From positions 496,001 through 560,000 of the forward strand of contig JAVKFU010000018.1 in the NCBI GenBank assembly GCA_040223695.1: DNA of 64,000 nucleotides, in the 5' to 3' direction. Made by a program: the position numbers and the translations under genes. The DNA comes from Deltaproteobacteria bacterium (GTDB lineage Bacteria > Desulfobacterota_D > UBA1144 > Nemesobacterales > UBA2774). The first letter of the stretch is position 1, and every line of letters starts with the position of its first letter. This document shows, one piece after another, positions 43,970-48,707 of this stretch. Below the pieces are notes generated by a model that made no database searches, was not told where the DNA came from, and saw only the letters and a program-made list of their open reading frames with translations.

Positions 43970-44680
43970 TCATTGACTTGATTGCCACATGATAAATTCA
44001 AGTATTACACCAATGATGGTAAAAATACTAGCTACTATTCCGATAATAATAATCACGGTTTTATATTTTTCCATGAAAGATATTTTATCTTGAAGGTTTA
44101 TTTTGGTATGAGAAAACTTCGTCATTGCATGTACAGAGAAGAAGAAGAGGGCTATTCCTAATAGTAGTAATATGCCTAAAATATCCAAGCCCCTATGTAA
44201 TAAAATAGGAAAAAATAATACACTTCCTGCCAAAACTCCTCGAATAAAATAACTCATTTTCGTATGAAAAAACCAAAAGAATGGTCTCCTTTTTCGCAAG
44301 AAATCGGTAACTTGAGAAAACTTACCTATGACCAAACTTTCTGAACTGCCAGATACATATAAGGAAACAAAAGAATTATAAAATTTGAGTTGGAGATGAC
44401 TTATACCTTCATCTCCATTGTTTGTTTTACCGTATTGGTTAATGTATAAATTAGAAAAAACTTTCGGTATTTTCTTATGCTTTAGAAAATCTTCCAGACT
44501 ATTTTCGTGTATTTCAGTTCCATCAAAAGAGGAACTGATTCTAAAATCATCGCTACCTTTAGTAATAAGAAAATCACTTTGTATAATTTCGACCAATTCA
44601 AACAAATCAGATTTATTAAGTCGACAAGGGTGCAAATCTTTTAATTTGGAATATGTGATCATGTTTGATTTTACACACAA
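43970..44680 (-). CDS. AT-rich hypothetical protein with three membrane segments
   Basis: A 236-residue protein: about 130 soluble residues followed by hydrophobic segments at about 143-160, 166-183 and 212-232. The nucleotide sequence is clearly more AT-rich than the genes around it and it sits next to tRNA-Ser, a common place for acquired genes. No family recognised. No flanking integrase or direct repeat of the tRNA end was seen. It could be an abortive-infection or stress membrane protein, but nothing proves this. Confidence 0.6.
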   Translation of the reverse strand: MCVKSNMITYSKLKDLHPCRLNKSDLFELVEIIQSDFLITKGSDDFRISSSFDGTEIHENSLEDFLKHKKIPKVFSNLYINQYGKTNNGDEGISHLQLKFYNSFVSLYVSGSSESLVIGKFSQVTDFLRKRRPFFWFFHTKMSYFIRGVLAGSVLFFPILLHRGLDILGILLLLGIALFFFSVHAMTKFSHTKINLQDKISFMEKYKTVIIIIGIVASIFTIIGVILEFIMWQSSQ

Positions 44681-45237: not shown

Positions 45238-45282
45238 CCTGATGTCGGCAGCCCGGTAACACGCTAAGCTGCCGACATCAGG
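45238..45282 (-). terminator. 15-base-pair hairpin overlapping the hicAB stop codon
   Basis: A perfect 15-pair stem (45238-45252 with 45268-45282) with a 15-base loop. One arm contains the stop codon of the HicAB gene (45278-45280). There is no T tract after it, so it may protect the mRNA end or slow ribosomes rather than act as a standard terminator. Confidence 0.6.
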
Positions 45283-45700
45283 AGGCTTGCCTGATCTCGA
45301 AAAATGCCGAAGTATTGCCGGGTTCAGCAACCAGCACCCCGTCCTGTCTCAATCCCTCGAGATGCAGACGGACGGAGTCGAGCATAAGCTCTTTTGTTTC
45401 CTCCAGTGTATCTCCCACGGCGACACAGCCCGGAAGGTCGGGACAGTAAGCCGAAAAACAGTTCCCGGACTGTTCTATTGTTATTTCGTAATGCTCCTTG
45501 TTTATTATCTGCTGTGATTCGAGGCAGTGTTTAAGTGAGTAAAAAAGCGCTCCTTCGGGAAGGTCCTTGTCCATTTTACAGTTGATGGTGAGCCTCGATT
45601 TTTTGCTCCTCAGCTTAAACTGGCGGTGGCTCCCGCAAATCCTCACGAGATACCATCCGTTGTTCTCTACTAAAAACTTGATCACCTCTCTAACTGTCAT
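45278..45700 (-). CDS. single-chain HicA-HicB fusion (toxin domain followed by antitoxin domain)
   Basis: A 140-residue protein made of two TA domains in one frame. Residues 1-66 match HicA (VREVIKFLVENNGWYLVRICGSHRQFKL, with the catalytic histidine in GSH), an mRNA interferase of the dsRBD-like fold. Residues about 72-125 match HicB (EITIEQSGNCFSAYCPDLPGCVAVGDTLEETKELM), which binds and inhibits HicA. Normally these are separate genes. At the junction an AAGGAG is kept in frame (encoding Lys-Glu of INKEHYE) and looks like the former hicB ribosome site. The usual C-terminal DNA-binding part of HicB is short or missing. SD GGATGGAG is before ATG 45700. It lies 42 bases after the ribbon-helix-helix gene. 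Confidence 0.8.
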   Translation of the reverse strand: MTVREVIKFLVENNGWYLVRICGSHRQFKLRSKKSRLTINCKMDKDLPEGALFYSLKHCLESQQIINKEHYEITIEQSGNCFSAYCPDLPGCVAVGDTLEETKELMLDSVRLHLEGLRQDGVLVAEPGNTSAFFEIRQAS

Positions 45701-45742
45701 GGCTCCATCCTCGCCTTGAGTGAATTTGTGAACTAAACTTTT

Positions 45743-45961
45743 CTATACGTCCTGTCTGTACATAAGTACGTTGTCGTACTCCTTTCCTACCATATTTTTA
45801 TCGAGATAGTCGGATATTGCCTCTTCAATAATCTTGGACTGGCTTTTTCTTGAAACAAATGAATAGAGTCTCAATTTTTCATAGAGGAGGGTTGGTATGT
45901 ATAAAGACCCTCTATGCATTTTATTCGGGTTTGCGCGTTGTTTTATTGTTCCGGCAGTCAC
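45743..45961 (-). CDS. ribbon-helix-helix (CopG/Arc-like) DNA-binding protein
   Basis: A 72-residue protein. After a short tail, residues 18-57 have the RHH layout: a strand (GSLYIPTLLYEKL) and two helices (RLYSFVSRKSQSKIIEEAISDYLDKN). The start is GTG at 45961, seven bases after a -10, which would be leaderless; ATG 45919 (MHRGSLY) also fits and gives a 42-base leader but no ribosome site. It precedes the HicAB fusion in the same transcript and probably represses the promoter through the 20-base palindrome 45974-45993. This would supply the DNA-binding function the fused HicB seems to lack. Confidence 0.75.
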   Translation of the reverse strand: MTAGTIKQRANPNKMHRGSLYIPTLLYEKLRLYSFVSRKSQSKIIEEAISDYLDKNMVGKEYDNVLMYRQDV

Positions 45962-45967
45962 AGTTCA

Positions 45968-45996
45968 TTTATAACATCATTACGTAATGATGTCAA
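45968..45996 (-). promoter_or_regulatory. promoter of the RHH-HicAB operon with palindromic operator in its spacer
   Basis: On the minus strand: -35 TTGACA (complement of 45991-45996), a 17-base spacer, and -10 TATAAA (complement of 45968-45973). The 20-base perfect palindrome ACATCATTACGTAATGATGT covers 45974-45993, so it fills the spacer and part of the -35. The GTG start lies where transcription should begin. Confidence 0.82.
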
Positions 45997-46173: not shown

Positions 46174-46680
46174 TTAAATCCATCTCCGTACGCGTTTTTT
46201 ATACTCCGTATATTCGGAGCCGAATTTCCTCTCCAGATAGGCTTCCTCGCGCATTATGACACCCTTCCGTATCACGGCCATAAAAAAGGGTATTACTATC
46301 AGGACCCAGAGGTTGTTTAACAGAAACGCAAGCGCTATTAACAATATGACCATCGACATATACATCGGGTTTCTGGTATAGGAGTAGATTCCGCCTGTAA
46401 CTACGGCTGTCGAGGGTTTTCGGACGTCTATATTAGTGCCGGACCTTTTCATCCTGCGTTGAGCCGACAGCACGATTATCCCCGACACTAACAGTATGAT
46501 AATCCCCGATATGAATCTGGCGGACCCATGTATGAAGCTGAGCGGCACGAGCAGATTTATCAGTATGCCGATGGCGAGGAATATGATGAATATCAGTGGC
46601 GGCATCGCTATGACGCCGGGGTTGTCATTGTCCGCTGTTGTCATTTTCTTTCCGCTTCCGTATTTCCCCCGCTTTCTCAT
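46174..46680 (-). CDS. isoprenylcysteine carboxyl methyltransferase-like membrane protein
   Basis: A 168-residue membrane protein with about four hydrophobic segments and the ICMT/PEMT signature in its C-terminal half (SYTRNPMYMS and then a closing EExxLxxxFGxEYxxYxxRVxRW-type motif). Bacterial members bind SAM and methylate small compounds or are of unknown role. I start at ATG 46680 because GGGAGGA lies eight bases upstream. It overlaps the preceding metal-sensor gene by 56 bases, so it belongs to the ECF operon. Its tie to metal sensing is by position only. Confidence 0.8.
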   Translation of the reverse strand: MRKRGKYGSGKKMTTADNDNPGVIAMPPLIFIIFLAIGILINLLVPLSFIHGSARFISGIIILLVSGIIVLSAQRRMKRSGTNIDVRKPSTAVVTGGIYSYTRNPMYMSMVILLIALAFLLNNLWVLIVIPFFMAVIRKGVIMREEAYLERKFGSEYTEYKKRVRRWI

Positions 46681-47152
46681 CTCCGCTTTCCTCCCATTTC
46701 TCCCACGCGCGGTGAGGTGGAAAATGATGAGTGGGTCTCCTTCTAATAAACTCAGCAATCATTATCCGTTGCTTCTGATCGAGCTCGCTCGCTATCTTCT
46801 TCGACGCGCTTGCGACCTCGGATACAAGCTCTCCCATAAGCTCGTGAAGCTCGGCCACTCTTTGATCGAAAAGTCCGCCGTCGAACTCAGGTGCCGTAAG
46901 GACTTCTAATACCTCGTCCCTTTTCCGCTCGATTTTTTTCTTCGTTTCATTGGTTTCACTGTGGAGTTCTTTCATCGTTCTCTCGACGAGTTCACGTTTA
47001 TCTTCGGGTAGTTCGCCCATCATTTCGTTCATCTGATTATGCATGGTGAGAGGTCCGGTGAGTCTATGGGAAAAGCTCCCGATGATGATGCCGATCAAAA
47101 GAACATTCAGCAGAATGGAAAACGCAAGCACGATTCTAAGCGCTTTACTCAT
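46625..47152 (-). CDS. periplasmic heavy-metal sensor/Spy-like protein (PF13801 type), membrane-anchored
   Basis: A 175-residue protein starting at ATG 47152 with a hydrophobic anchor (residues 6-28) and a long helical periplasmic part of the Metal_resist/CpxP/ZraP type (RELVERTMKELHSE, LFDQRVAELHELMGELV). The tail is rich in histidine and charge (RRRPTHHFPPHRAWEKW), which could bind metal. It overlaps the anti-sigma gene by eight bases and the ICMT gene by 56. In CnrX-type systems such a protein pairs with the anti-sigma factor. Upstream in-frame sequence to 47407 is only the shadow of the anti-sigma gene. Confidence 0.8.
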   Translation of the reverse strand: MSKALRIVLAFSILLNVLLIGIIIGSFSHRLTGPLTMHNQMNEMMGELPEDKRELVERTMKELHSETNETKKKIERKRDEVLEVLTAPEFDGGLFDQRVAELHELMGELVSEVASASKKIASELDQKQRIMIAEFIRRRPTHHFPPHRAWEKWEESGDEKAGEIRKRKENDNSGQ

Positions 47153-47576
47153 AATAAATCTCCTCGTAATATAACAGTCCGGCCAGCTGAGTACTGCTCT
47201 CTGCGTTCTCGGTATAGCTGGCATACAAGAATCCGGCGAATATACCGAGTACAAGAAGAAGCGGAAGGGCGATTGCAGGTCTAGGAAGTGGTATCGTCTT
47301 AAATACTGAGCCCAGAATATCGAACATTGAGTAATTTTCGAGCGCGGGTTTTTCCATTGCCGCCGTGTCGATGATTCTTCGCTCGAGTCCCGGGGATGCT
47401 TCCTCAAAACGCCTCATTGAAAGTGCTTCCTCAAATCGTCTCTCCTCGTTTAATGCTTTCAGCAGGTCGGGCTGCAACGAACAGACCTCTTTTGCTTTTT
47501 CTCTCAGTTCAGCGGGCCACTTATCGAGTTCGGCCCCGTATGCCTCCAGGTATATGAGGAATTTTTTTCTATCCAT
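47145..47576 (-). CDS. anti-sigma factor-like membrane protein
   Basis: A 143-residue protein with a cytoplasmic N-terminal helical region (MDRKKFLIYLEAYGAELDKWP), one membrane helix (about 103-121) and a short periplasmic tail of about 22 residues. This is the plan of anti-sigma factors in ECF/metal-sensor operons. Its start overlaps the stop of the sigma gene by eight bases. No zinc (HxxxCxxC) motif is present. Assignment rests on position and topology. Confidence 0.7.
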   Translation of the reverse strand: MDRKKFLIYLEAYGAELDKWPAELREKAKEVCSLQPDLLKALNEERRFEEALSMRRFEEASPGLERRIIDTAAMEKPALENYSMFDILGSVFKTIPLPRPAIALPLLLVLGIFAGFLYASYTENAESSTQLAGLLYYEEIYYE

Positions 47577-48150
47577 CGTGCAGTCCCTCCCTCTGTGTGG
47601 TGCCGGTTATTTTTCTCCTCAAAGAAGCCTTTGCGCGCATGAGGAGCGATTCGACTGCCTTTACACTTACGCCCATGATCTCTGCCGCTTCTTTGTTGCT
47701 GATACCTTCGTAAAAGCACAGAGCGAGCGCCGTCTGTTGGGAATCGGGCAGCTCCGCTATGTATGTCTCTATATCGTCTTTTCTTCTCTTCATTTCCACC
47801 AACTCCTCGGTGCCGGCGCTCCGGTCCGGATGGTCGTATCCCGCATCTAGCGGGAGTGTAGTTGTCTTTTTCTTCCTGTCGAGGCACGCGTTCGTTACGA
47901 CTCTATAAAACCAGGTCGTAAACTTCGCGTTCCTGCCGCTGTCCCATATGTTGGGTTTGCTCCACAGCATTAGGAAACTTTCCTGCACCAGGTCCTCCGC
48001 TTCTTCCCTGCTCACGAGCATCCGGTATGCTAGCCTGTAATATTTCTCAGTATGCCTTGTTACAAGCTCCGCAAATGCACTGCGGTCACCCTCCTTTTTT
48101 ATGCGCGCCATAAGCTCTTCATCGGTATGTTCTCTGCTCTCGCTTATCAT
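47569..48150 (-). CDS. ECF-family RNA polymerase sigma factor
   Basis: A 193-residue sigma-70-related factor. Region 2 is clear (SAFAELVTRHTEKYYRLAYRML, EEAEDLVQESFLMLW, then KFTTWFYRVVTNACLDRKKK) and region 4 follows (ELPDSQQTALALCFYEGISN, KEAAEIMGVSVKAVESLLMRAK). I use ATG 48150, which gives a normal ECF length; ATG 48186 or a TTG at 48285 that overlaps the upstream stop would add 12 or 45 residues that look unlike a sigma factor. No site has a clear ribosome signal. It likely drives its own operon, which carries metal sensors on both sides. Confidence 0.9.
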   Translation of the reverse strand: MISESREHTDEELMARIKKEGDRSAFAELVTRHTEKYYRLAYRMLVSREEAEDLVQESFLMLWSKPNIWDSGRNAKFTTWFYRVVTNACLDRKKKTTTLPLDAGYDHPDRSAGTEELVEMKRRKDDIETYIAELPDSQQTALALCFYEGISNKEAAEIMGVSVKAVESLLMRAKASLRRKITGTTQREGLHDG

Positions 48151-48281
48151 GGGGGTCAGGGCTTTTATACTTGCGGTCGACTCCATAAGATAATAACATC
48201 CGGGCGTACTGAAATGAACAGACGGAAGGGATGGATCTAACACCTCAGCGCGCCCGTTGACGAGTGTAGGAGTTTTAGCTA

Positions 48282-48707
48282 TCAATCATGCGCGCCGCGG
48301 TGATGCGGTGCATCGGGAGCTATCCGGGCCAGTATCTCCCTCTCCTGTTGCGTCAGTTGAGGAGCTATCTCTGAAATTGTGTCGGTCAATGTTGCAAACA
48401 TCTCGTTCATAAGTGAATGCATCTTGTCGGCGCTTGATTTGAATGCATCTTCGTCGAACTCAGCCGCGGTCAGAATAGCTTTCATCTCATTTCGCGTTAA
48501 TTTCATCTCCTCCCGTAAACCTGCATTCTCTTCCCTCAATGTTTCTAATTCGGAGAGAATTAGTTTCTGCGTTTCTGGAGAGAGTTGTAACAGCAGTTCC
48601 ATTTTTGCTCCGTGCTCCGGGCTGCCTGTCCAGGGCTGAGCGAAAACCGCTATCGAAGCGGTTAACGCGAGGCCTGATATAGCCGCCATTATCACATATT
48701 TTCTCAT
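48282..48707 (-). CDS. secreted Spy/CpxP-like periplasmic protein
   Basis: A 141-residue protein with a cleavable signal peptide (residues 1-23, FAQ cleavage) and a helical body with LSPETQKLILSELETLREEN and LTQQEREILARIAPD, the two hallmarks of Spy/CpxP-like envelope chaperones and metal sensors. It ends in PHHRGAHD, a histidine-rich tail like the second such gene in the operon. AGGGGG precedes the ATG. First gene of the operon; a CGTATAA near 48759 on the minus strand, preceded by GAAGGT about 22 bases earlier, could be an ECF-type promoter, but this is a weak match. Confidence 0.75.
   Translation of the reverse strand: MRKYVIMAAISGLALTASIAVFAQPWTGSPEHGAKMELLLQLSPETQKLILSELETLREENAGLREEMKLTRNEMKAILTAAEFDEDAFKSSADKMHSLMNEMFATLTDTISEIAPQLTQQEREILARIAPDAPHHRGAHD

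What the first reader, a model, noticed from the sequence alone, without database searches (positions are those of the whole stretch)
45278..45700. Single-chain HicA-HicB fusion
One 140-residue frame holds a full HicA-like toxin domain (with the catalytic histidine in GSH) and then a HicB-like partial RNase H antitoxin domain. HicA and HicB are usually two genes. The junction keeps AAGGAG in frame, like the relic ribosome site of a former hicB gene. A toxin joined to its inhibitor may be self-silenced and freed only by proteolysis.
Basis: partly seen in the sequence, partly recalled or inferred. Interest (0 to 1): 0.75.

Follow-up and report, generated by a model that had tools for sequence, protein, structure and literature searches.

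The report
Fused HicA-HicB with its own repressor
In one family of uncultured Dadabacteria, a bacterial RNA-cutting toxin and its inhibitor are made as a single protein, always paired with a small DNA-binding gene under one unchanging switch-like promoter; such fusions are known, but this conserved layout appears to be a new variant.

Summary
On the minus strand, 45278-45700 encodes one 140-residue protein with a HicA domain (residues 4-52) and a HicB-like domain (71-129), both above Pfam cut-offs. It is not a sequencing error or decaying fusion: the same gapless 140-residue protein occurs in 8 genomes from 4 genera of one family (Candidatus Dadabacteria by relatives' record titles), at one syntenic chromosomal site. 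No stop separates the domains, and dN/dS is about 0.02-0.06 overall. The 'relic ribosome site' is not supported: AAGGAG is intact only in this genome.

A ribbon-helix-helix (RHH) gene (45743-45961) lies 30-45 nt upstream in all eight genomes and in none of the other 50 phylum genomes searched. Before it is a promoter with 22 invariant bases whose 17-bp spacer lies inside a 20-bp palindrome. That site occurs once per genome, only in those eight.

Best reading: a vertically inherited, self-inhibited HicA RNase under its own RHH repressor, like three-component toxin-antitoxin systems with toxin and antitoxin joined. HicA-HicB fusions were already described (mBio 2024 Classes 11-13; Slr1999), but this layout matches none of those classes. 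Toxicity and binding are untested.

The parts
45278..45700 (-). fused HicA-HicB gene, 140 aa, ATG start, TGA stop
   Evidence: ORF; Pfam; seven orthologues of identical length; only HicA match in its own genome
45521..45700 (-). HicA domain, residues 1-60
   Evidence: Pfam PF07927 4-52; secondary structure and fold match to 6g26 HicA; dN/dS about 0-0.02
45626..45628 (-). codon of His25 of the GSH motif, putative catalytic His, invariant in 8 genomes
   Evidence: Ser24 is Cys in the four genus g2 sequences
45491..45520 (-). variable linker, residues 61-70, holds the in-frame AAGGAG at 45494-45499
   Evidence: lowest identity and relaxed selection here; lowest pLDDT between the two domains
45281..45490 (-). 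HicB-like partial RNase H domain, residues 71-140, no DNA-binding domain
   Evidence: Pfam PF15919 71-129; b-b-b-a-b order and matches to HicB N-domains
45708..45712 (-). GAGGA, likely ribosome-binding site of the fused gene
   Evidence: GAGGA(T) just before the ATG in all 8 genomes
45743..45961 (-). ribbon-helix-helix protein, 72 aa, GTG start; putative dedicated repressor
   Evidence: Pfam RHH_3 24.3 bits against 21.6; present only beside the fused gene, in all 8 genomes
45968..45996 (-). promoter TTGACA - 17 nt - TATAAA
   Evidence: sequence; TTGACATCATTACGTAATGATG invariant in all 8 genomes, one site per genome
45974..45993 (.). perfect 20-bp palindrome ACATCATTACGTAATGATGT containing the promoter spacer; putative RHH operator
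   Evidence: perfect 20 bp in 7 genomes and 18 bp in the eighth; 0 of 2000 shuffles gave an arm of 9 or more

Best explanation
The unit is a two-gene operon: an RHH repressor gene, then one gene for a self-inhibited HicA ribonuclease. Shown here: the fused gene, the RHH gene and the promoter-palindrome are inherited together at one chromosomal site and held by strong purifying selection. Inferred: RHH dimers bind the palindrome, which contains the spacer between the -35 and -10 boxes, and block transcription of both genes (negative autoregulation). Inferred: the HicB domain folds onto the HicA domain of its own chain, or of a neighbouring chain, and covers His25, so the protein is made already silenced at a fixed 1:1 ratio. 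Inferred: a trigger (phage or stress factor, partial degradation from the HicB end, or RNA or ligand binding to HicB) opens the pair and frees the RNase. It works like a three-component toxin-antitoxin system with a separate repressor, but with toxin and antitoxin joined.
For: Eight gapless 140-residue orthologues, no internal stop, no in-frame ATG/GTG/TTG at the junction, HicB start Met gone. dN/dS of HicA about 0-0.02 and HicB about 0.02-0.09, with replacement rates below those of the syntenic neighbours. Catalytic His invariant. Exact co-occurrence of RHH and fused gene, 8 of 8, neither alone among 58 phylum genomes. 22 invariant promoter-operator bases against 4 of 105 invariant columns just upstream, one site per genome and only in those 8. 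Gap of 30-45 nt and a conserved ribosome site suggest one transcript. Both domains predicted folded as HicA and HicB. HicB here lacks a DNA-binding domain, so a separate repressor fits.
Against: No toxicity, RNase, DNA-binding or transcript data exist. The HicA motif GSHRQFKHP of most relatives reads GSHRQFKLR here and GTL reads GAL, so activity could be changed, though toxic E. coli HicA also has KLR after its His. Low mobility and extreme conservation are unusual for toxin-antitoxin modules and would also suit a domesticated regulator. PADLOC models do not match. The tools gave no coordinates, so masking of His25 by HicB was not seen.
Confidence: 0.6

Rival explanations
1. Domesticated RNA-binding regulator: the HicA part has lost toxicity, and the fused protein binds RNA (dsRBD-like HicA plus partial RNase H HicB) as a housekeeping post-transcriptional regulator, with RHH controlling its level.
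For: Vertical inheritance at one syntenic site in 4 genera; very low dN/dS; only HicA in the genome; loss of the KHP and GTL motif letters; four lineage-specific conserved cysteines.
Against: His25 and its GxH setting are invariant, and the HicA part is the most conserved part, as expected if catalysis matters; the antitoxin-like domain is kept too.
Confidence: 0.27
2. Anti-phage sensor-effector like CapRel-SJ46: the HicB part both inhibits HicA and senses a phage product; RHH only sets the level.
For: Proposed for fused HicAB proteins in the 2024 survey (PMC10865869).
Against: No PADLOC match, no defence neighbours next to it; strong sequence constancy does not look like an arms race. This is a sub-case of the best explanation that names the trigger.
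Confidence: 0.08
3. Accidental or decaying fusion, or sequencing error joining two genes.
For: An out-of-frame TAATAA and an AAGGAG lie at the junction of this genome.
Against: Eight genomes assembled apart have the same length and frame, no gaps, and strong purifying selection across both domains.
Confidence: 0.02

Closest known systems
Fused HicAB, Class 11 (HicA + HicB + C-terminal HTH or RHH in one chain; Gerdes, mBio 2024, PMC10865869)
   Same: HicA first, HicB second, one gene; an RHH may be present; 200-residue proteins of this kind were already noted in PMC4826407
   Different: Here the chain stops after HicB with no DNA-binding domain, and an RHH is a separate upstream gene
Fused HicBA, Class 12 (small HicB first, then HicA; PMC10865869)
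   Same: Small two-domain fusion without a DNA-binding domain
   Different: Opposite order of domains
Class 1 two-gene hicAB with small HicB (PMC10865869); nearest phylum example G010:C105, plasmid example Calothrix NIES-4101
   Same: Gene order, sizes, 41-51% identity of each part; likely ancestral layout
   Different: Two genes, stop codon and restart (overlapping by one base in G010), no RHH gene beside it
Slr1999 of Synechocystis PCC 6803 (PMC4963859)
   Same: HicA and HicB in one protein, small HicB type (COG1598)
   Different: Listed as antitoxin/toxin order and without fused homologues elsewhere; no separate RHH repressor described
Three-component systems with separate repressor (paaR-paaA-parE, cited in PMC7167474; omega-epsilon-zeta, whose omega is RHH by own knowledge)
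   Same: Repressor encoded first and apart from antitoxin and toxin
   Different: Unrelated toxins, and antitoxin and toxin are separate proteins there

Membership tests
HicA toxin (PF07927) | HicA profile match above the curated cut-off | tested here: met
   39.8 bits against 27
HicA toxin (PF07927) | catalytic His in G-x-H | tested here: met
   H25 invariant in 8 genomes
HicA toxin (PF07927) | RNase activity and toxicity | not testable with these tools
   needs expression
HicB antitoxin (PF15919) | partial RNase H domain | tested here: met
   35.6 bits against 27; HicB fold matches
HicB antitoxin (PF15919) | inhibits HicA | not testable with these tools
   needs co-expression
Fused HicAB Class 11 | C-terminal HTH or RHH domain in the same chain | tested here: not met
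   protein ends 11 residues after the HicB match, no further domain
Fused HicBA Class 12 | HicB before HicA | tested here: not met
   HicA is N-terminal
Two-gene hicAB Class 1 | separate hicA and hicB genes | tested here: not met
   single frame in all 8 genomes
RHH repressor | RHH profile match above the curated cut-off | tested here: met
   RHH_3 24.3 bits against 21.6
Autoregulated operon | palindromic operator in the promoter, specific to the unit | tested here: met
   binding itself not testable here

The most novel reading that the evidence does not exclude
A distinct class of HicA system, not among the 14 described contexts: HicA fused to a small, DNA-binding-domain-less HicB, controlled by a separate RHH repressor gene and an invariant in-promoter operator, kept vertically as a chromosomal self-inhibited RNase with a normal cellular role.
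Probability: 0.45. Interest if true: 0.65.

Novelty: new variant of a known kind. Interest (0 to 1): 0.5.

Why it matters
Fused toxin-antitoxin proteins are usually rare, scattered and possibly dead. This one is demonstrably maintained by selection across four genera, so it is a good case for asking how a toxin with a built-in inhibitor is switched on, since loss of antitoxin alone cannot do it. It also offers one answer, for one lineage, to the question raised in PMC10865869 of how hicAB units whose HicB lacks a DNA-binding domain are regulated: by a separate RHH gene with its own operator.

Tried and rejected
Relic ribosome site at the junction: rejected, not conserved. Separate HicB made from an internal start: no in-frame ATG/GTG/TTG between codons 44 and 86 in any of the 8 genomes; the only invariant internal ATGs are codons 43 and 106 and neither sits at the domain boundary. 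A wider RHH regulon: no second operator site in any family genome. Phage, plasmid or virus origin: relatives there are below 60% identical; those inspected are two-gene, and 0 of 88 HicA ORFs (52 distinct) in viral contigs carry HicB in the same ORF; a direct search of viral contigs for the fusion found none. RHH relatives on plasmids: none. First structure model from 3 rows was poor (pLDDT 56) and was replaced by the 12-row model. An alignment of partial HicA and HicB rows was misaligned and dropped. Searches in two other phyla gave only two-gene or partial hits, or nothing in a single genome, so frequency of this layout elsewhere is not known. Absence in the other eight family genomes is inconclusive: contigs G003:C104 and G010:C160 end near the expected place. 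The consensus promoter scan does not list this promoter because its second hexamer is TATAAA and that scan demands a final T. Table S1 of PMC10865869 could not be read, so a Dadabacteria fusion may be listed there.

Full report
What is there. The reported stretch holds a single 140-codon reading frame on the minus strand. Pfam finds HicA_toxin at residues 4-52 and HicB_lk_antitox at 71-129, both above the curated cut-offs; NCBIfam and PADLOC do not match it. It is the only HicA match in its genome. AlphaFold2, given 12 aligned two-domain sequences, predicts a-b-b-b-a (HicA) then b-b-b-a-b (HicB) with pLDDT 82.6 and pTM 0.78. Foldseek matches the first part to Burkholderia HicA (TM 0.84 by target length, 1.7 A) and the second to HicB N-terminal domains. 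Nine of the twelve alignment rows were two-gene neighbours read through their stop, used only to align the domains.

Is it real? The fusion is found in eight genomes: the window's own and seven others of the same family, in four genera. Two of them carry titles as Candidatus Dadabacteria, a class that NCBI places in Thermodesulfobacteriota. All eight proteins are 140 residues without gaps. None has a stop between the domains. Pairs with measurable dS give dN/dS of 0.02-0.06 for the whole gene, 0-0.02 for HicA, 0.02-0.09 for HicB, and higher, erratic values for the 11-residue junction. The fused protein changes more slowly than the neighbouring genes: in the window-G002 pair dN is 0.05, against 0.20 for the oxygenase-like gene, 0.30 for the methyltransferase-like gene and 0.13 for RHH. 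It is a maintained gene and not an error.

The junction. AAGGAG lies in frame at codons 68-69, but the orthologues read AAAGAG, AAGGAA, CGCGAC, AAGGAC and AAAGAC there. The reading as a relic ribosome site is not supported; the codons simply encode Lys/Arg followed by Glu/Asp. The start Met of two-gene HicB proteins is gone, and no start codon lies in frame near the junction in any genome. HicB can therefore not readily be made apart from HicA.

Origin. The nearest two-gene relatives in the phylum are G010:C105 and G030:C20 (40-51% identical), where hicA ends in a stop and a small hicB follows, overlapping by one base in G010. Plasmid and phage relatives inspected are also two-gene, and none of 88 HicA ORFs in viral contigs is fused to HicB. 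Fusion of a Class 1 hicAB pair in an ancestor of this family is the simplest account (inference).

Directly upstream, 42 nt away (30-45 nt in the relatives), lies a 72-residue RHH gene on the same strand. In 58 genomes of the phylum it is found only in the eight genomes that have the fused gene, always next to it. Before the RHH gene lies TTGACA-TCATTACGTAATGATGT-TATAAA. The first 22 bases are identical in all eight genomes, whereas only 4 of the 105 columns further upstream are invariant. The 17-bp spacer lies inside a palindrome, ACATCATTACGTAATGATGT, perfect over 20 bp in seven genomes and 18 bp in the eighth. With up to three mismatches the site occurs once per genome, in those eight genomes and in none of the other eight of the family. 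This is a private operator and not a regulon signal. The -10 box ends 6 nt before the RHH start codon, so the RHH message is probably leaderless (inference); the first 14 RHH codons vary synonymously while the peptide is kept, so translation from that start is likely. The fused gene has a conserved GAGGA ribosome site.

Setting. The order methyltransferase-like gene, RHH, fused gene, and, on the other strand, the oxygenase-like gene is kept in all eight genomes as far as contigs reach; in the window a tRNA-Ser gene lies between the last two. The unit sits at a fixed chromosomal site, unlike the usual mobile toxin-antitoxin module.

How it most likely works. Shown: anatomy, co-inheritance, selection, and an invariant palindrome in the promoter. 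Inferred: the RHH protein binds that palindrome and represses both genes; the HicB domain inhibits HicA in the same chain or a neighbouring chain; a trigger frees the RNase. [quoted passage not shown] Against full confidence: letters common in relatives are altered (KHP to KLR, GTL to GAL), though E. coli HicA also has KLR after its His. The main rival is a domesticated RNA-binding regulator, which low mobility and strong constancy would suit. The two are separated by a simple expression test.

What is known. Single-chain HicA-HicB proteins are not new. The 2024 survey (PMC10865869) lists Class 11 (HicA-HicB-DNA-binding domain), Class 12 (small HicB then HicA) and Class 13 (large HicB then HicA); PMC4963859 describes Slr1999 and PMC4826407 notes 200-residue fusions. 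The present protein has the order of Class 11 but lacks its defining C-terminal domain, and the size of Class 12 but the opposite order. The separate RHH gene recalls three-component systems with their own repressor (paaR-paaA-parE in PMC7167474). I therefore file it as a new variant of a known kind. The same survey asks how units with DNA-binding-domain-less HicB are regulated; here the evidence points to a separate RHH gene.

Noticed in passing
window 45238-45282: 15-bp inverted repeat (CCTGATGTCGGCAGC / GCTGCCGACATCAGG, 15-nt loop) overlapping the stop codon of the fused gene; the same arms are seen in G002 and G006 but not in the other five genomes; no T run, so not a standard terminator.
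   Followed up: partly
window 45278-45700 (residues 22, 41, 59, 81): Cysteines absent from the aligned two-gene relatives: C41, C59 and C81 are invariant in all 8 fused proteins and C22 in 7 of 8; could be a redox or metal site, possibly near His25.
   Followed up: no
window 45278-45300: The C-terminal residues QAS are invariant in the fused proteins, and the two-gene HicB of G010 ends in EAS.
   Followed up: no
window 46625-48707: ECF sigma factor gene (47569-48285) with a small gene just downstream (47145-47576, possible anti-sigma) and two Metal_resist (Spy/CpxP-like) genes at 46625-47407 and 48282-48707, all minus strand; also present in G002 and G004.
   Followed up: partly
window 43970-44680: 236-residue ORF, probably a membrane protein, no Pfam or PADLOC match; not found in the syntenic stretches of the relatives.
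   Followed up: partly
L028:13338-13369 (G011 upstream of RHH, -164 to -132 on the gene strand; locus coordinate not computed exactly): A further 15-bp-arm palindrome AGGCTAATTGTGTCAGATGACACAATTAGCCT upstream of the RHH promoter in one genome only.
   Followed up: no
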